Source of the DNA: Actinomycetes bacterium
GTDB lineage: Bacteria; Actinomycetota; Acidimicrobiia; Acidimicrobiales; JAJYXR01
Assembly: GCA_021801525.1 (NCBI GenBank)
Contig: JAJYXW010000166.1
Location: forward strand, 1-38,245
Reading direction: 5' to 3'
DNA: 38,245 nt
Shown: positions 7,183 through 14,061 of the stretch, one piece after another
Position numbering within the stretch: position 1 is the stretch's first letter
Layout: each line of letters begins with the position of its first letter
Translations under genes and position numbers: made by a program
Notes under the pieces: generated by a model
What the model saw: only the letters and a program-made list of their open reading frames with translations
Databases searched by the model: none
Told to the model about the DNA's origin: nothing

Positions 7183-10100
7183 TCAGGCAAGTACGTTACG
7201 CGGGCCGAGCACTATCACGGGCACGACGCACTCTTCGAGGCTCAGCCCGCCATGCGCGTAGCGGCCTTCCGGGCCATGCCCCCACGAATGGCTCTCCCTG
7301 AAGCCGTGATCGGCCACGACGACGACCGGCACGCCCGGAGGCACCGCCGCCAGTGACGGCAGCACGCGGCGGCGAAGCGAGGCCATCGCGTCGTCGAGGA
7401 GCGCAGCCAGCTCCGCCGAAGTCCGGTGAAGGCGCTCGTCCACTGTCGTTGACACAGCGATCGAGAGCGGAGGCCCCGCAGCCCACAGCTCGTGCAGGCG
7501 CGAGTGCCTGTCCTCGCGGTCGGCCCGCTCCACGACGGCGGCCTCGTAGCCGAGATGCGAGAACGGCGGCGGGTACTCGACTTCGCCGCTGGCACCTGTC
7601 ATGGCCCCGGCTGCCCCGGCAGCTCCGGCAGCTCCGGCAGCTCCGGCAGCTCCGGCCGGGACGGGCGCGCCCCGAGCTAGCGACGCCATCGACTCTGCAG
7701 TGCGGGTCGGCGCGGGCACGACCGCCACCTTGTGACGAACGTCCCTTCCGGGAAGCAGCCGGGCAAGGTCCTCTGCCACGTGCTTGCCCAGGTCCACCCT
7801 CATCGCGTCCACGAGAAGGACCGCGACCCGGCCGTGGCTCTCGAGAAGCGGGGCGACGACTTGCCTCCCCACGTCCCAGATCATCAGGCAGCCCGGAAAA
7901 CCCGTGTCCGCGTGGAGGGCAAGCTCACTATCGAGTCCTGCGAGGAGGCGCCGCGCGGGAACCCAGAGCGAAGAGACGGCCTCGGGAGATAGAACGCTCG
8001 TGCCGGCAGCAGCGAGATCCGCTCTGCTCAGCAGCTCGGGCACCATCGCGGCATGCTGCGGGTACAGGTCTTCGACCAGCTCTCTCGCGTCGCCGGTGCC
8101 GAGGCTCCTCTCGACGAAGGCCAGGTGCCGGGCCGCCGCCAAGACGAAGCCGAGCGCTACAAGCTCCTCATCGGTCACAAGAGCGTGACCTGAAGCTATC
8201 GAGGCCAGGTCGACATCCCCGATCCGCTCGGCCATCTGCAGAGCCCCCGACAGGCGGGACACCAGCTCACGAGCAGCGAGACGAAGTGGAAGCCTTAGCA
8301 GCCTCTCGCTCCGGAGCACTTCCAGGGCTAAGTCTGCCGGCTGCTCGGACATCGACAGCGTGCGCTCCACCTCGTCCCCGATGACCGTCCCCGGCGCGAT
8401 CTTCGCATCGAACGCTGCCAGCTCGGCGTGCACCGCTCCGTCGGATACTGCCGCCTCCGCCGCATGCAGGAGAGACGTGCTGTGCGCAAGAAGGCTCGCA
8501 GGAACCCAGGACGGGGGCTCCGAGCGCCCCTGCAGCGCGGCAGCATGGCTAGCCGAACCCTGGCCGGCTGAATCCCGTCCGGCTGAGACCTGGCTGGCCC
8601 AACCCTGGCCTGCGCCGCTCGCAATGCCACCGAGACCCGCCCACCATGCCGCCAGCCAGAACGCCTCGCCCGGCTGCTCGGATGGAAGTGCCTGCGCTAT
8701 GCCCGGAAAGCGCTGCCGGAGGAACGCAAGGGTGGCGCTCCCCGCCGACGCGGCCCCTGCCGACGCGGCCCCTGCCAACGGGCGAGCTTCAGGGGGCGCA
8801 CCTCCAGCGGAGCTCTGTGGACCGGCACTGTCGAGCACCTCGACGAATCCCGCTGGAGGCAGGTTGCCATCGGGGTCGACCCATCGAGCCAACAGCTCGA
8901 CCAGGCGCCGCTTGGGGTAACGGCGCCCCACGAGGTCGTCGCGCAGCGACGCGAGATCCCTGCTCACGACCAGCTGGTTCCCGGTCAGGACGTCGCCTAC
9001 TACGGCGACCAGCTCGGGGGACAGAACCTCGCCCGCAAGAACCGTGCAGGCGCCTTCCGGAAGCTTTCCACCGGTTGCCGCGTCGAGGGCCATTGCCTGC
9101 AAGCGGCGAAGTGCCGCGGCTAGCTCCTCTCGACCCAGCGAAACGAGATCTTCCGCAGCCGAGCTGAGCCGCTCACGCTGCTCGGGACGAGCGAGCTCCA
9201 CGAGGTACTGCAACACGCCGTTCGCCGCCTGGGCCACCAGAGCATCGCCGTCGAGAGAAGGAAGCGGGGTGCCTATCTCGAAGCCGCAGGTGCAGCGAGG
9301 CTTCCATGCGAGCTCCAGCTCCAGGCGCCTCGTGCAAGGTCGCGGCGCCGAGGACGACAAGGTGCGCTCTATTCGCACCTGGTCGTCTGTGACCGCCAAG
9401 GCGCGCACGCCGGCCAAGGCGGCCAGTGCCCTATAGGGAGGGCTTGCCCGCAGTGCGTCTACCTCGCGTGGCCCGACTGCTGAGTAATAGGCGTCGTGAG
9501 CCTCCTGGTACGCGGCCACGTAGGCCGAGCGCACTTCACGCACTGCGGCAAAGAGCTCCCCCGTGCGCTCCTCCAACGCGATCCTGAAGACGTCGCGAAG
9601 CAAGGCCATGGCGCCCTCGTAGAGAGCCTGGAGCCGGACGTCCCCTGGGGGGAGCGTGAAGTCCGGGTGCGAGAGGTACGCGGCCGCCTCCTCCACCCTC
9701 CTCGAGTCGTCGCGCAAGAAGCGTGCGAGCGCCTCGACCCGGCGTGCTGCCCCGAGCGTCACTGCGGGTTCACGTACCGCGGCAACCAGTTGCCTCAGCC
9801 CCACGCTGCTCGACGAGCGCTCCCCGCACGACTCCACGAGCGCGGACAAGAGCTCTACATCAGTGGTGATCGCTGCGGTCGAGGCACCGGCAAGGATCGC
9901 CACGTCCTTTGCGGAAGCCATGCCGGAGCGCACCTGAGCCAGGGCCTCCACCCTCGCGTCCAGCCAGGTGCGAGCGTAGGTCCATGCGCTCCGCTGGACG
10001 GCGGCGTTCCACGGGTCGAAGGGGCCAGGCCCGGCAATGGGAGCCAGCTCGGCAACGCGAGCTCGCACCTCCGGCTCCACGAGCTCACCCGCGCCCAGGC

Positions 10101-12792
10101 GGTCGGTGGAGGTCACGGTGACGAATGGCTCGGCAAAGCGCCTGCGGCCGCGCCACATCTCGAGCAGGCCGGCCTGCACGCAGGCGTTCAGCACTAGCAC
10201 CGCCTCCGGCTCGCTCAAGCCGATCCATCCTTCGGCCAGCTCGCTGACTACGGTGCCGGCGACGGCGGGCTCGCCGTCTCCCACCAGCCTGAGAGCCTCC
10301 GCAACGGCAGGACTGCGCGAAGGGTCGGGGGACACAACCGCACCGTCGGCTCTGAGGCGCGCCAGCCCGAGCGGCACGAGGTAGCCCTCGACGAGCGGGC
10401 GGAGCCGCTCCCTCGCCAGGGCGGCAGAGCTGAGCCGCCCCGCTGCAATGACGTCGTTCACGAGCTGGCGCAGCAGCCGGTCTCCAACCAGCTCCCCGCG
10501 GGGAGCCACGAGCCTGTGGCCCGGGTGCAGCGCCGACAGGAGTGGCTCGGCCAGGGCTGGCAGGTGCCTCTCGAAGGGCATGCCGGCAAGGGAGGGCAGG
10601 TCGGGCGAGGGCGGTGGGTGACCCGCCCTGTAGGAGGCGGTGAGAGCTTGGGGGGTGTCGGAGCCCAGAGGCATTTCCCCCTGGAGATCCCTACCACGCT
10701 GATCGGGACGCTCGCGAACTGCGGGGTAGGCCACCTCTCCCTCGAAGTAGGCGCGCCTCAGTATCTCCCTCGCTCGAGCTGCTCCGCTCTCCAGCGCGCG
10801 AGCGAGGATCTCGGTTTGGTCCAGGGAGCCTTCGGACTGGGCCACCAGCATTACCTGGCGAGACCCGTGCATCTCGATCGCAGCGCTCAGCTCCTCGGAG
10901 CGCAGCGGTGCAGGGAGCCATATGGCTAGGCGGCCCGATCCGGAGCTGAGCTCACGTGCCCGGGCAAGCGCCGCGGCGTGCTCGGCCACCTCCAGTTCCG
11001 CTACCACGAGGCAGCCTTCGGCACCCGCCGCGACGGCTCTCGCGACTAGCTCGGAGGCATCCTCCGCCGTGAGCTCGAGCACCCTCGCGCGGCACACGTA
11101 GAGCGCACGCCTCGTGTTCTGCCAGAGAAGCTCCCGTAGCGTCGGCCCGAGCTCGCCCATCATCGCGAGCGGCAGCGACGGGGAAGACCCCAGCTCTTCG
11201 AGTGTCGCCACTACCCGGCGATCTGCGGGGCTCACCTCTGCGACGACCTGCTCGACTCGCCTGCGGACCACCAAGGCGGCGTCGGCCCCAACCTCCACCA
11301 TGTAGGTCCGCGGCGGGCCGGCCTCGCTCACGACGTAGGCGCCGTGCTCGAGCAGCGGGCCCAATATGGCCTGCTCGAGGTACGCAGTGTTGGCCGTGGG
11401 GTCGAGGTCGCTCGCTCTCACCATCAGCATCCCCGCAAGCTCGGCCGCGCTGCGCGGCCGCTCCAGGGGGGACGATGCGAGAAGTGCGAGCAGCTTTACG
11501 GTACGCAGCGCCAGAGGCCTGTCCTCGGCGTCGAGGAAGCCTTCGAGCGCTCGCTCGTAGTAGGGGACGACCGCCTCGGCTATCCGCGACGTCTCGTGGC
11601 GCTCGCGAAGGCGGTCCTCGAAACGGTCGTAGATCCGCTCCGGCGTGACCAGCTCGGTGTAGGGCCGATCGAGCGCGCTGCTCAGCTCGCCGTACACGAA
11701 CGCGACCACCCCGCGCTGCTGGGAGAGGAGGAAGCGCAGGCCCTCGAGCACGCTCAAGGTGTCGGGGTGCAGCGGGTATGTCTGCGCAAGGCGCTCGGCG
11801 GTGACTCCTGGTGCGAGGTTGGCTGCCTGCAAGTCGCGGTGCAGCTTCCCGATCCACTCGGACGATCCCTCTCGGAGCTTCACCAGCCTTCCGCGCACCA
11901 GGTCCTCGACGTGGCGCATGGAGAGCGAGAGGGTGGTCGGGTAACGGTCGCGGATGCGCGCGAGCTCGCGCTGGCTCACGTTCGCGACTTCCTCGATGCT
12001 CTCTTGGAGGGCTCCCACCACGACGACCGGACGGCGCGCCGCCCACTCGCCCAGGAACTGGAGGAACCTGAGGTCCTCCGTGAGCGCATCGGCACGCTTC
12101 GCCCGCAGGAACTCGCTCAACTCGTCCACGAGCACGACCACCCCGCGCCAGCCGCCTGCCTCGGCCGCTTGGCCGATCGCGTCCCAGGCCTCGGAGCGAT
12201 CCGCGCCGGACGTGGGCTCCTCACGGCCGAGCGCCCGCCACGCCCTCGCAGCGACCACGTCCTCCAGAGTCGCCTTGGCACGGTACTCGACGAGCGGGAC
12301 CCGCACGGCGAGCATGGGGCCGCTTTGCTTCGCCAGGTCCTGCAACCCGGGCTCCCACCCGGAGAGGTCCGATCCGGCGGGATCCGAGAGCAGCTCCCCG
12401 AGGGCAGCGAGGAAATGCGACTTGCCCGACCCGAAGGGGCCGACTACGAAGAACGCCCCGCCCACACCGCCTCGCGCCTCGGACGAGGTCGATCCTGCTG
12501 CAGGTAGCTGCGTGGGTGGCGCTGCAGATGCCGCCCGGGATGCCGCCGACAGCACCGCCGAGAGGCTCCCGACGACGTCTCCGGTCAGCACCAGCTCTGG
12601 CAGGCAGCCTTGGTCCGAGTCGAGGCGCACCACCGTCTCCACGCGGGAGATCTCGACCAGCTCTCCTATCGTCCGCACGTGCGCGGCCTTGCCAGCCGCC
12701 TCCCCTCTACCTCCTCGAGCAGGTGCGTCAGGCACAGATCCGCCCCGCTCCCGTGCCGTCATCTGGCGCCACGGAGCATCACGTGGGGTCAT
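7183..12792 (-). CDS. giant BREX/Pgl-like ATPase fused to a PglZ domain
   Basis: This 1869-residue protein starts like BrxC/PglY (DUF6079) ATPases: TIGELVEISRVETVVRLDSD at 41-60, Walker A GPFGSGKS at 118-125 and Walker B VVVLVDELSEF at 218-228 (Asp223, Glu224). A long helical middle follows, with a C-T-C-G pair. The last 220 residues form an alkaline-phosphatase-fold PglZ domain with its metal-site motifs: LLVDAM (Asp1662), a T-R-T nucleophile region near 1696-1698, VVVADHGF (Asp1828, His1829) and AHGGLSLEE (His1847). In BREX and Pgl phage defence these are separate proteins. Low-complexity Ala/Gly linkers come from in-frame minisatellites near 1390-1420 and 1714-1731. The ATG overlaps the upstream TPR gene by 14 bp. 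Domains are clear; the role in defence is inferred. Confidence 0.8.
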   Translation of the reverse strand: MTPRDAPWRQMTARERGGSVPDAPARGGRGEAAGKAAHVRTIGELVEISRVETVVRLDSDQGCLPELVLTGDVVGSLSAVLSAASRAASAAPPTQLPAAGSTSSEARGGVGGAFFVVGPFGSGKSHFLAALGELLSDPAGSDLSGWEPGLQDLAKQSGPMLAVRVPLVEYRAKATLEDVVAARAWRALGREEPTSGADRSEAWDAIGQAAEAGGWRGVVVLVDELSEFLRAKRADALTEDLRFLQFLGEWAARRPVVVVGALQESIEEVANVSQRELARIRDRYPTTLSLSMRHVEDLVRGRLVKLREGSSEWIGKLHRDLQAANLAPGVTAERLAQTYPLHPDTLSVLEGLRFLLSQQRGVVAFVYGELSSALDRPYTELVTPERIYDRFEDRLRERHETSRIAEAVVPYYERALEGFLDAEDRPLALRTVKLLALLASSPLERPRSAAELAGMLMVRASDLDPTANTAYLEQAILGPLLEHGAYVVSEAGPPRTYMVEVGADAALVVRRRVEQVVAEVSPADRRVVATLEELGSSPSLPLAMMGELGPTLRELLWQNTRRALYVCRARVLELTAEDASELVARAVAAGAEGCLVVAELEVAEHAAALARARELSSGSGRLAIWLPAPLRSEELSAAIEMHGSRQVMLVAQSEGSLDQTEILARALESGAARAREILRRAYFEGEVAYPAVRERPDQRGRDLQGEMPLGSDTPQALTASYRAGHPPPSPDLPSLAGMPFERHLPALAEPLLSALHPGHRLVAPRGELVGDRLLRQLVNDVIAAGRLSSAALARERLRPLVEGYLVPLGLARLRADGAVVSPDPSRSPAVAEALRLVGDGEPAVAGTVVSELAEGWIGLSEPEAVLVLNACVQAGLLEMWRGRRRFAEPFVTVTSTDRLGAGELVEPEVRARVAELAPIAGPGPFDPWNAAVQRSAWTYARTWLDARVEALAQVRSGMASAKDVAILAGASTAAITTDVELLSALVESCGERSSSSVGLRQLVAAVREPAVTLGAARRVEALARFLRDDSRRVEEAAAYLSHPDFTLPPGDVRLQALYEGAMALLRDVFRIALEERTGELFAAVREVRSAYVAAYQEAHDAYYSAVGPREVDALRASPPYRALAALAGVRALAVTDDQVRIERTLSSSAPRPCTRRLELELAWKPRCTCGFEIGTPLPSLDGDALVAQAANGVLQYLVELARPEQRERLSSAAEDLVSLGREELAAALRRLQAMALDAATGGKLPEGACTVLAGEVLSPELVAVVGDVLTGNQLVVSRDLASLRDDLVGRRYPKRRLVELLARWVDPDGNLPPAGFVEVLDSAGPQSSAGGAPPEARPLAGAASAGAASAGSATLAFLRQRFPGIAQALPSEQPGEAFWLAAWWAGLGGIASGAGQGWASQVSAGRDSAGQGSASHAAALQGRSEPPSWVPASLLAHSTSLLHAAEAAVSDGAVHAELAAFDAKIAPGTVIGDEVERTLSMSEQPADLALEVLRSERLLRLPLRLAARELVSRLSGALQMAERIGDVDLASIASGHALVTDEELVALGFVLAAARHLAFVERSLGTGDARELVEDLYPQHAAMVPELLSRADLAAAGTSVLSPEAVSSLWVPARRLLAGLDSELALHADTGFPGCLMIWDVGRQVVAPLLESHGRVAVLLVDAMRVDLGKHVAEDLARLLPGRDVRHKVAVVPAPTRTAESMASLARGAPVPAGAAGAAGAAGAAGAAGAMTGASGEVEYPPPFSHLGYEAAVVERADREDRHSRLHELWAAGPPLSIAVSTTVDERLHRTSAELAALLDDAMASLRRRVLPSLAAVPPGVPVVVVADHGFRESHSWGHGPEGRYAHGGLSLEECVVPVIVLGPRNVLA
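7611..7655. repeat. 9-bp in-frame repeat in the PglZ domain
   Basis: Four exact copies of CAGCTCCGG (7620-7655) and one diverged copy encode a Gly-Ala-Ala run on the minus strand. The run lies between the nucleophile motif and the second metal motif of the PglZ domain, so it probably extends a surface loop. Confidence 0.85.
8557..8616. repeat. 15-bp in-frame repeat in the ATPase-PglZ linker
   Basis: Four diverged 15-bp units (type ACCCTGGCCGGCTGA) encode GQGWA, SQVSA, GRDSA and GQGSA on the minus strand. A second 15-bp repeat, CGACGCGGCCCCTGC twice, lies at 8746-8775. Both fall in the linker before the C-terminal part of the giant protein. Confidence 0.75.
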
Positions 12793-13888
12793 CCGAAGGA
12801 CGCGCAGTGCCGGTTGCTTCGGTGCCAGCTACTTCTTCTGTGCCAGCTACTTCTTCTGTGCCGGCTACTCCGGCGCCTTCCGCCGCCGAATCGCCTGCTT
12901 GCGGGGTGCCCGTAACTGCCACCCCCGGTGCCGGCAGCTTTCGGAGCGCCCCGTAGAACGCTCCGCGCCTGTGCCCGGCGCGTGGCAGAGCCTCCTCGAG
13001 CACCTGGCGCAGCTCGTCCAGCGCGCCGCGCTCTTGCTGCATACGCACGTAGGTGCGAAAGAGGATCACGTCGTGAGGATCCTCCACCAGGCACCGGCCG
13101 AGCACTGCCGCAGCATCGTCGAGCTTGCCCGCCCTACGTAGGGCGAAGCCCTGCATCTTGCGGGCGTACGCGTCGCCATGCTCCGCGGCTCGCCTACCCC
13201 AGGTGTCGGCAGCGCTGGCCGCGTCTCCACGCCCGGCTCGCATCTTCGCGAGCACTCCGAGCAAGTGGCGGTTCCCCCTACCGCTGCTCTTCAGCAGAAC
13301 CTCGATCTCACGATCACGCTGTTCGGCCGGGAGCCCGAGCAGGCGAGCCTCGACGAGCTTCGCGTACGCCCACTCGTCCTCGGGATCGTGCTCGTGAGCA
13401 CGGGCATACATCACCTCGGCCTCGTCGAGGTGCTTCTCGCGCATCGCCAGGTCACCCAGCAGAACCCACGGAGCGCCGGAGGAGTCGTCGCGCTCGGCCG
13501 CCCGAGATGCCGCTCCCCTTGCCGCCTCCAAGTCTCCGAGCTGGAGCCTGGCGCGTGCCAGCTGCACTAGGGCCCACGTGCCCTTCGCGCCGAGCGCATC
13601 TGCCTGCTGGTAGGCGCGAGCCGCGTCTTCGAATCGGCGCATCCGATAGCACAGGTCGCCACGCAGCTGCGCGGTGAACGCCGTGGTGCCGGCTGCGGCT
13701 TCCGCGCGGTCGATTGCATCTTCGGCCTCGTCGAGCCGGTTCCTCCGAAGCTGCACCCGAGCCAGACGGGCGAGCGCGAAAGCGTGGCCTGGCGCCTTTC
13801 CAAGCACCTCCTCGAGCGCGATCACCGCCCCGTCGAGATCGCCCGAGCGTTCGAGACGCCCCGCCTCCTCGAGCTGCTCATCAGTCAT
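12779..13888 (-). CDS. TPR-repeat protein coupled to the ATPase-PglZ gene
   Basis: This 369-residue soluble protein is built of about eight tetratricopeptide repeats from residue 1 to about 310. Examples are EEAGRLERSGDLDGAVIALEE, LARVQLRRNRLDEAEDAIDRA and AYQQADALGAKGTWALVQLA. TPR solenoids bind peptides or partner proteins and have no enzymatic residues. The tail (after RKLPAPGV) is low-complexity, with AGTEEV repeats from an 18-bp minisatellite. I start it at ATG 13886-13888; longer frames upstream run into a tandem-repeat region and lack a ribosome site. Its stop lies 14 bp inside the ATPase-PglZ gene, so the two are almost certainly one operon and plausibly one complex. Confidence 0.82.
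   Translation of the reverse strand: MTDEQLEEAGRLERSGDLDGAVIALEEVLGKAPGHAFALARLARVQLRRNRLDEAEDAIDRAEAAAGTTAFTAQLRGDLCYRMRRFEDAARAYQQADALGAKGTWALVQLARARLQLGDLEAARGAASRAAERDDSSGAPWVLLGDLAMREKHLDEAEVMYARAHEHDPEDEWAYAKLVEARLLGLPAEQRDREIEVLLKSSGRGNRHLLGVLAKMRAGRGDAASAADTWGRRAAEHGDAYARKMQGFALRRAGKLDDAAAVLGRCLVEDPHDVILFRTYVRMQQERGALDELRQVLEEALPRAGHRRGAFYGALRKLPAPGVAVTGTPQAGDSAAEGAGVAGTEEVAGTEEVAGTEATGTARPSDDPT
12822..12875. repeat. 18-bp in-frame repeat in the TPR gene tail
   Basis: GTGCCAGCTACTTCTTCT occurs twice exactly (12822-12839, 12840-12857), and a third diverged unit follows. On the minus strand it encodes AGTEEV repeats at the C-terminus of the TPR protein. Confidence 0.85.
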
Positions 13889-13901
13889 GGCGACGAGCCT
13901 A

Positions 13902-14015
13902 CGACGCCCCAGGCACCATCCCGCCGCCATCTGACAATCCGGCCGCCATCCGACTATCCTGCCGCCCCGCCAGCATCCCGCCGCCATCCGACAATCGGGC
14001 CGCCCCGCCGGCGAG
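13902..14015. repeat. 19-bp-period tandem repeat in the divergent promoter region
   Basis: Six consecutive 19-base units of the type CCGCCGCCATCCGACAATC fill most of the gap between the leftward TPR/ATPase-PglZ operon and rightward rimO. The units at 13921-13939 and 13978-13996 differ at one base; the others vary in the second half. There are no spacers, so it is not CRISPR. It may carry repeated regulator sites or be a minisatellite. Confidence 0.8.
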
Positions 14016-14061
14016 ACGCCTCCGTAGCGCCGCCCTACGCCGCCGCCGGTAGATTGTCCTG

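What the first reader, a model, noticed from the sequence alone, without database searches (positions are those of the whole stretch)
7183..13888. Two-gene TPR plus BrxC/PglY-like ATPase-PglZ fusion, outside any BREX island
The 1869-residue protein carries a DUF6079-type P-loop ATPase start (Walker A 118-125, Walker B 218-228) and a complete PglZ metal site (Asp1662, Thr1696/1698, Asp1828, His1829, His1847). In BREX and Pgl defence these are two separate proteins working with a methyltransferase. Here they are one chain, translationally coupled to a TPR protein, with no BrxX/PglX, PglW kinase, BrxA, BrxB, BrxL or helicase within the window. The locus sits between trpB and rimO, i.e. in a housekeeping neighbourhood. 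I infer a minimal two-component BREX-related system, either a compact phage defence or a PglZ phosphatase/nuclease complex with another signalling role. I do not know a described system with this architecture, but could not search.
Basis: partly seen in the sequence, partly recalled or inferred. Interest (0 to 1): 0.88.

Follow-up and report, generated by a model that had tools for sequence, protein, structure and literature searches.

The report
TPR-partnered BrxC–PglZ fusion protein
Two neighbouring bacterial genes encode a TPR protein and one giant protein that joins two normally separate parts of the BREX phage-defence machine, the BrxC DNA-handling ATPase and the PglZ nuclease; no methyltransferase or other BREX part was found with them, so this is probably a stripped-down, previously undescribed relative of BREX whose function still has to be tested.

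Summary
A 369-aa TPR protein (12779-13888, minus) overlaps by 14 bases a 1869-aa protein (7183-12792, minus). Residues ~42-559 are a BrxC-type ORC/Cdc6-like AAA+ ATPase plus first wHTH (hhalign against BREX-3 BrxC, E 1.4e-18). Residues 1028-1174 align with the matching C-terminal stretch of BrxC (E 1.3e-4). Residues 1633-1869 are a PglZ core (hhalign E 2.5e-5; top structural matches PorX and PglZ). So it is a nearly complete BrxC joined to a PglZ lacking the BrxB-docking domain. I found 13 loci, all in Acidimicrobiia/Actinomycetes genomes. The TPR gene is directly upstream in 9 of 9 readable cases; the two genes co-vary (r 0.93). The pair is rare (6 of 248 genomes of the order) and sits in many different chromosomal sites: an accessory module, not a conserved neighbour of rimO or trpB. 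No BREX methyltransferase, BrxB, BrxL or PglW was found nearby; the genome's only Eco57I-type methylase belongs to a XhoI-like RM pair. The largest recent BREX survey (main text) does not describe this architecture. Best reading: a methylation-free, BREX-derived ATPase-nuclease with a TPR adaptor, more likely defence than housekeeping. Function is inferred, not shown.

The parts
12779..13888 (-). TPR protein, 369 aa, first gene of the pair
   Evidence: Pfam TPR_19 1.9e-18 and others. Directly upstream of the fusion in 9/9 loci whose 5' flank is readable. An alternative upstream ATG at 13987 is not supported by the homologue alignment.
7183..12792 (-). BrxC-PglZ fusion, 1869 aa
   Evidence: Full-length homologues at 54-57% identity.
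11413..12681 (-). ORC/Cdc6-type AAA+ ATPase, residues 38-460
   Evidence: DUF6079 1.4e-20. hhalign to BREX-3 BrxC, residues 42-559, E 1.4e-18. Best PDB profile hits are BrxC 9zn5/9zll/9zdx. Foldseek top hits are ORC subunits and BrxC, E about 2e-3.
12418..12441 (-). Walker A GPFGSGKS, residues 118-125
   Evidence: Invariant in all homologues that cover it.
12109..12141 (-). Walker B region, residues 218-228 (D223, E224)
   Evidence: Invariant D223/E224.
11944..11958 (-). Probable arginine fingers R279 and R283
   Evidence: HMMER alignment to BrxC places them on BrxC K326/R330, the fingers seen in the cryo-EM structure (PMC13326643). Invariant.
10729..11283 (-). wHTH-like plus alpha/beta domain, residues 504-688, in the order described for BrxC
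   Evidence: AlphaFold2 secondary structure. Low sequence similarity: 500-910 gives no significant hhalign hit.
10087..10485 (-). Probable tandem wHTH, residues 770-902
   Evidence: AlphaFold2 secondary structure only.
9271..9711 (-). BrxC C-terminal region with Cys motif C1153...C1167-x-C1169, residues 1028-1174
   Evidence: hhalign to BREX-3 BrxC 961-1106, E 1.3e-4, 4.2e-4. Cysteines invariant.
8827..8997 (-). Strand-helix-helix-strand subdomain, residues 1266-1322, resembling the extreme C-terminus of BrxC (dimerisation region)
   Evidence: AlphaFold2. By-eye match QLVVSRDL...FVEV to VVVSGGDI...LRFVVE at the BREX-3 BrxC end. Inferred, not scored.
7897..8739 (-). All-helical linker, residues 1352-1632
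   Evidence: AlphaFold2. No alpha/beta BrxB-docking domain.
7186..7896 (-). PglZ phosphodiesterase core, residues 1633-1869
   Evidence: PADLOC PglZ 3.3e-10; Pfam PglZ sub-threshold (0.034). hhalign to BREX-3 PglZ E 2.5e-5. PDB PorX 5.7e-4 and PglZ 1.7e-3. Foldseek PorX/PglZ E 8e-5 to 2e-4, prob 1.00.
13889..14061 (.). Divergent intergenic region between the TPR gene and rimO, probable promoter region, with imperfect direct repeats

Best explanation
A two-gene, BREX-derived module. The large protein is a BrxC-type AAA+ DNA-binding ATPase covalently joined to a PglZ metal-dependent nuclease/phosphodiesterase core. In BREX, BrxB bridges the BrxC AAA+ domain to the first ~98 residues of PglZ; here no BrxB was recognised, that docking domain is absent, and the fusion replaces the bridge. 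Proposed mechanism: ATP-bound subunits assemble on DNA through the AAA+ and wHTH regions. The co-translated TPR protein acts as adaptor or sensor that either restrains the complex or tells it when to fire. Release of the PglZ core then nicks DNA or hydrolyses (cyclic) oligonucleotides. No host-methylation step was found, so self/non-self discrimination must come from the trigger, which makes an abortive-type or structure-sensing phage/plasmid defence the most likely role. Shown here: homology, conservation of catalytic residues, pairing, co-variation, patchy distribution. Inferred: oligomerisation, TPR role, nuclease activity, defence.
For: Two independent colinear BrxC matches: residues 42-559, E 1.4e-18, and 1028-1174, E 1.3e-4. 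PglZ core match covering the catalytic positions. ATPase and PglZ catalytic residues invariant in homologues at 52-57% identity. TPR gene paired in 9/9 readable loci, spacing -14 to +23 bases in the eight measured; pairwise identities correlate r = 0.93; dN/dS 0.22 (fusion) and 0.10 (TPR) in one pair, L003 vs L009. Patchy: 6/248 genomes of the order in six families, 1/236 in a phylum sample. Varying neighbourhoods. One locus (L022) has a TrwC relaxase within about 5 kb and an integrase-like ORF (identified by eye) about 10 kb away. Another (L023) has a full-length DpdE-like SNF2 helicase next door. The PglZ N-terminal ~98 residues bind BrxB, which bridges to the BrxC AAA+ domain, and PglZ is a metal-dependent nuclease that also cleaves cA6 (PMC12205998, PMC13326643). 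The only Eco57I-type methylase in the genome sits with a XhoI-type endonuclease.
Against: No defence island around the window copy or most homologues. The TPR protein is as conserved as the enzyme and under purifying selection, unlike a fast-evolving phage sensor. Within one subclade (L003, L007, L009) neighbouring genes are shared, so there the locus looks stably inherited. No phage, plasmid or viral-contig copy was found. The first-half AlphaFold model is poor (pLDDT 65, pTM 0.37), and the middle region (500-910) shows no sequence similarity to BREX-3 BrxC. The genome is 93% complete, so an unlinked partner could be missing. No experiment exists.
Confidence: 0.55

Rival explanations
1. A non-defence DNA- or nucleotide-signalling complex: the PglZ core acts as in PorX, hydrolysing (cyclic) oligonucleotides or modified DNA ends, and the AAA+ part loads or remodels DNA under control of the TPR protein, in a stress or chromosome-maintenance role.
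For: The closest solved structures to the C-terminal part include PorX, a regulator. The TPR protein has low dN/dS and is conserved as well as the enzyme. Neighbours are mostly ordinary metabolic genes. The locus is stable within one subclade.
Against: Found in only about 2% of genomes of the order and not found in the one same-family genome sampled, which is unlike a maintenance function. There is no receiver domain. The ATPase half is specifically BrxC-like.
Confidence: 0.22
2. A modification-dependent or structure-dependent restriction enzyme: the wHTH and AAA+ parts recognise modified or replicating foreign DNA directly and PglZ cuts it, with TPR as an assembly factor.
For: No methylase partner was found, and PglZ nicks and linearises DNA in BREX type I (PMC12205998). 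BrxC binds DNA through its wHTH and alpha/beta regions (PMC13326643).
Against: No reader domain for modified bases was recognised. The alpha/beta and second wHTH assignments rest on a low-confidence model.
Confidence: 0.15
3. A BREX remnant that works only with BREX components supplied from elsewhere in the genome, or a decaying relic.
For: Parts are clearly BREX-derived. Homologue L004 is frameshifted and carries a broken duplicate TPR start.
Against: Long intact ORFs with invariant active sites in many families. No PglX-like methylase seen in the genome. BrxB docking domain absent.
Confidence: 0.05
4. Chance or assembly artefact: two genes joined by a missed stop or chimeric contig.
For: None found.
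Against: The same fusion is a single ORF of about 1,680-1,830 aa in several other independent contigs, with invariant residues on both sides of the junction.
Confidence: 0.01

Closest known systems
BREX type 3 BrxC (DUF6079), e.g. Leisingera thetidis plasmid pBMJM1_5, locus L058
   Same: AAA+ ATPase with the same Walker and arginine-finger pattern, colinear C-terminal Cys-motif region, similar extreme C-terminus.
   Different: Separate 1241-aa protein in an operon with BrxF, a methyltransferase, a helicase and PglZ. Here about 25% identity over the ATPase, fused to PglZ, no methyltransferase or helicase.
BREX type I PglZ (E. fergusonii, Salmonella, Acinetobacter; PDB 9zn5_B)
   Same: PglZ nuclease core with catalytic Thr and the HGG histidine.
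   Different: The fusion has no N-terminal BrxB-binding alpha/beta domain and no C-terminal beta-sandwich (against PMC12839542 and PMC12205998).
PorX (T9SS response regulator)
   Same: PglZ core preceded by a helical linker, ending right after the core.
   Different: No receiver domain; instead a BrxC ATPase.
Type-3 BREX-related (BR) systems (PMC12839542)
   Same: A minimal PglZ core combined with a BrxC-like ATPase system.
   Different: Those use a DUF499 ATPase, separate PglZ, iSTAND, a helicase and a methyltransferase.
SspC of SspBCDE (phosphorothioate defence)
   Same: Homologous ATPase domain (PADLOC SspC 3.8e-11).
   Different: No SspB, SspD or PAPS-reductase gene recognised nearby; PglZ fused.

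Membership tests
BREX (any type) | BrxC/PglY ATPase | tested here: met
   As a domain of the fusion. Below NCBIfam's curated cut-off (40.9 vs 400 bits).
BREX (any type) | PglZ protein | tested here: met
   Core only, fused. Below NCBIfam's cut-off (36.5 vs 400 bits) and Pfam's (14.5 vs 25).
BREX (any type) | BrxX/PglX methyltransferase (or PT-modification genes in type 4) linked to the locus | tested here: not met
   None among the window genes scanned or homologous flanks. The only Eco57I hit in the genome is a XhoI-type RM. Genome 93% complete.
BREX (any type) | BrxB-like iSTAND and the PglZ domain that docks it | tested here: not met
   No such gene recognised beside any locus. The 1352-1632 region is all-helical in the model, with no alpha/beta domain. 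A very divergent BrxB elsewhere in the genome is not excluded.
BREX (any type) | BrxL, PglW or a helicase partner | tested here: not met
   None in the window. One homologous locus only (L023) has an adjacent SNF2 helicase, not recurrent.
BREX-related type 3 (BR) | DUF499 ATPase + methyltransferase + helicase + separate PglZ | tested here: not met
   ATPase matches DUF6079 and PglZ is fused; no methyltransferase or helicase partner.
PorX-type regulators | N-terminal receiver domain before PglZ | tested here: not met
   BrxC-like region instead.
Anti-phage defence system | Lowers phage or plasmid success | not testable with these tools
   Needs phage challenge.
Anti-phage defence system | Enrichment next to defence genes or mobile elements | tested here: inconclusive
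   Two loci show such neighbours (L022, L023); the others do not.

The most novel reading that the evidence does not exclude
A methylation-free, two-gene immune system in which the BREX core (BrxC and PglZ) has been fused into one ATPase-nuclease and placed under a TPR sensor, so that BREX-type effector action is separated from DNA modification.
Probability: 0.42. Interest if true: 0.85.

Novelty: new variant of a known kind. Interest (0 to 1): 0.7.

Why it matters
How BREX couples BrxC ATP use to PglZ cutting is an open question, and in known systems it is studied in multi-protein complexes that also need a methyltransferase. A natural single-chain BrxC-PglZ with one partner would be a minimal system to test whether the ATPase controls the nuclease directly. 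If it defends, it would show that BREX-type restriction can work without self-methylation, with discrimination moved to a protein sensor.

Tried and rejected
Artefact by missed stop or chimeric contig: rejected, same fusion in independent contigs. Core gene beside rimO: rejected, relatives keep rimO-pgsA-cinA but have other genes upstream, and none of the homologous loci showed rimO or trpB in its flanks. Full BREX member: rejected, no methyltransferase, BrxB or BrxL found. Hidden PglX elsewhere in the genome: the only Eco57I-type methylase is next to a XhoI endonuclease. Phage, plasmid and viral-contig copies: none. Similarity of the middle region (500-910) to BREX-3 BrxC: no significant match. 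Empty-site comparison: no clean trpB-rimO junction in the five relatives read, so insertion could not be dated. Literature: no match for PglZ with TPR as a partner, nor for a BrxC-PglZ fusion, in the main text of PMC12839542 or in searches; supplements could not be read. Several whole-genome searches failed at the machine, so sampling outside the class is thin.
Full report
OBSERVATION. The two minus-strand ORFs are present exactly as described: TPR protein 12779-13888 (369 aa) and the large protein 7183-12792 (1869 aa), overlapping by 14 bases. Flanks are trpB on one side and rimO-pgsA-cinA-(short ORFs)-recA on the other. G+C of the pair (0.69-0.70) is slightly above the window mean (0.68); there is no compositional sign of recent import.

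WHAT THE LARGE PROTEIN IS. Pfam gives DUF6079 at residues 114-407 (E 1.4e-20) and only sub-threshold PglZ (E 0.034). PADLOC gives BrxC 2.4e-14, SspC 3.8e-11 and PglZ 3.3e-10. NCBIfam BREX_BrxC and BREX_PglZ match far below their cut-offs. A profile of the ATPase region finds BrxC chains as the best solved structures (9zn5, 9zll, 9zdx; E 6e-5 to 5e-4). A profile of the C-terminal part finds PorX and PglZ. Profile-profile alignment to four BREX-3 BrxC proteins covers residues 42-559 with E 1.4e-18. A second, colinear segment, 1028-1174, aligns with BrxC 961-1106 (E 1.3e-4) and includes a Cys motif. By eye, 1266-1322 also resembles the extreme C-terminus of BrxC, and AlphaFold gives it the strand-helix-helix-strand shape described for the tip of BrxC (PMC12839542). 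The region 500-910 has no detectable sequence match. Its predicted order of wHTH, alpha/beta and wHTH elements agrees with BrxC, but that model is weak (pLDDT 65). The PglZ core aligns with BREX-3 PglZ (E 2.5e-5), and Foldseek puts PorX and PglZ first with probability 1.00.

CATALYTIC RESIDUES. Walker A K124, Walker B D223/E224 and R279/R283 are invariant. R279 and R283 fall on BrxC K326/R330, the arginine fingers seen in the Acinetobacter structure (PMC13326643). D1662, T1696, T1698, D1785, H1789, D1828, H1829 and H1847 are invariant in every homologue that covers them.

WHAT IS MISSING. BREX PglZ begins with a ~98-residue domain that binds BrxB, and BrxB bridges to the BrxC AAA+ domain (PMC12205998, PMC13326643). 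The fusion has instead an all-helical stretch (1352-1632) and ends directly after the core, without the C-terminal beta-sandwich. No BrxB gene was recognised nearby. I infer that covalent fusion has replaced the BrxB bridge.

DISTRIBUTION AND PAIRING. Thirteen loci are in hand, counting the window. Full-length copies are 52-93% identical to one another; the window's copy is 54-57% identical to the others. The TPR gene lies directly upstream in 9 of 9 loci where that flank is readable. In the eight pairs measured, spacing is -14 to +23 bases, with a 4-base stop-start overlap in four of them. TPR and fusion identities correlate at r = 0.93. dN/dS is 0.22 and 0.10 in the one pair tested, L003 vs L009. 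In the order sample the fusion is in 6 of 248 genomes, from six different families, and it was not found in the one same-family genome sampled. A phylum sample of 236 gave only the window's own genome; a class sample of 296 gave no new carrier. Phages and viral contigs have none; plasmids have only ordinary BREX-3 BrxC at 25-29%.

NEIGHBOURHOOD. Neighbours differ: glutamate synthase and MFS; luciferase-like and FAA hydrolase/ILVD; S8 peptidase; AHSA1/glyoxalase; complex I genes. In G030 (L022) the pair lies between a recBCD-type operon with a DUF4143 AAA gene and a TrwC relaxase; an integrase-like ORF follows about 10 kb on (RecB, RecC and the integrase identified by eye). In G032 (L023) the next gene is a full-length DpdE-like SNF2 helicase (PADLOC 3.2e-201). 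Three related genomes (L003, L007, L009) share neighbouring genes. In relatives rimO-pgsA-cinA is conserved but upstream of rimO is variable, and none of the five relatives read has the pair there. The pair is an accessory module, sometimes near mobile or defence-type genes, usually not.

MECHANISM. Shown: homology to BrxC and PglZ with intact active sites; TPR pairing and co-variation. From the literature: BrxC binds DNA and oligomerises with ATP and DNA; PglZ nicks DNA and hydrolyses cA6. Inferred: the fusion loads on DNA, the TPR protein gates it, and the PglZ core is the effector. With no methylation partner found, the trigger must carry self/non-self discrimination. I put defence in some form at about 0.6-0.7 overall, the specific TPR-gated ATPase-nuclease model at 0.55, and a non-defence signalling or DNA-maintenance role at 0.22. 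The low dN/dS and high conservation of the TPR protein argue against it being a rapidly evolving phage-protein sensor and are the main reason for caution.

NOVELTY. The 2026 survey of BREX and BREX-related systems covers 8475 taxa and describes fusions of other kinds; its main text contains no TPR partner and no BrxC-PglZ fusion among the passages found, and it discarded unassigned hits. I could not read its supplements or preprints. The pair fails the defining features of BREX (no methyltransferase, no BrxB, no BrxL), so it should not be filed as BREX. It probably works with BREX core parts. I rate it a new variant of a known kind.

Noticed in passing
L023:13961-17434 (G032): A 1157-aa DpdE-like SNF2 helicase (PADLOC E 3.2e-201) lies convergent and about 80 bases downstream of the fusion; not seen at other loci.
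   Followed up: partly
L022 and L065 (G030:C78): The pair sits between recBCD-type genes with a DUF4143 AAA gene and a TrwC relaxase; an integrase-like ORF (by eye) follows, suggesting an integrative conjugative element nearby.
   Followed up: partly
L004:7193-7471: A broken second copy of the TPR gene start (91% DNA identity over 377 bases to the first) lies after a frameshifted fusion; tandem duplication remnant or misassembly.
   Followed up: partly
G000:C14 (L027:8761-11222): A XhoI-type restriction-modification pair with an Eco57I-family methylase elsewhere in the same genome, next to a DDE transposase.
   Followed up: yes
window 7604-7657 and 12817-12870: Short in-frame tandem repeats: Ala/Gly 9-base units inside the PglZ core and 18-base units at the TPR C-terminus; the aligned stretches are poorly conserved in homologues.
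   Followed up: no
window 13908-14004: Three imperfect ~40-base direct repeats in the divergent intergenic region between the TPR gene and rimO, possibly regulatory.
   Followed up: no
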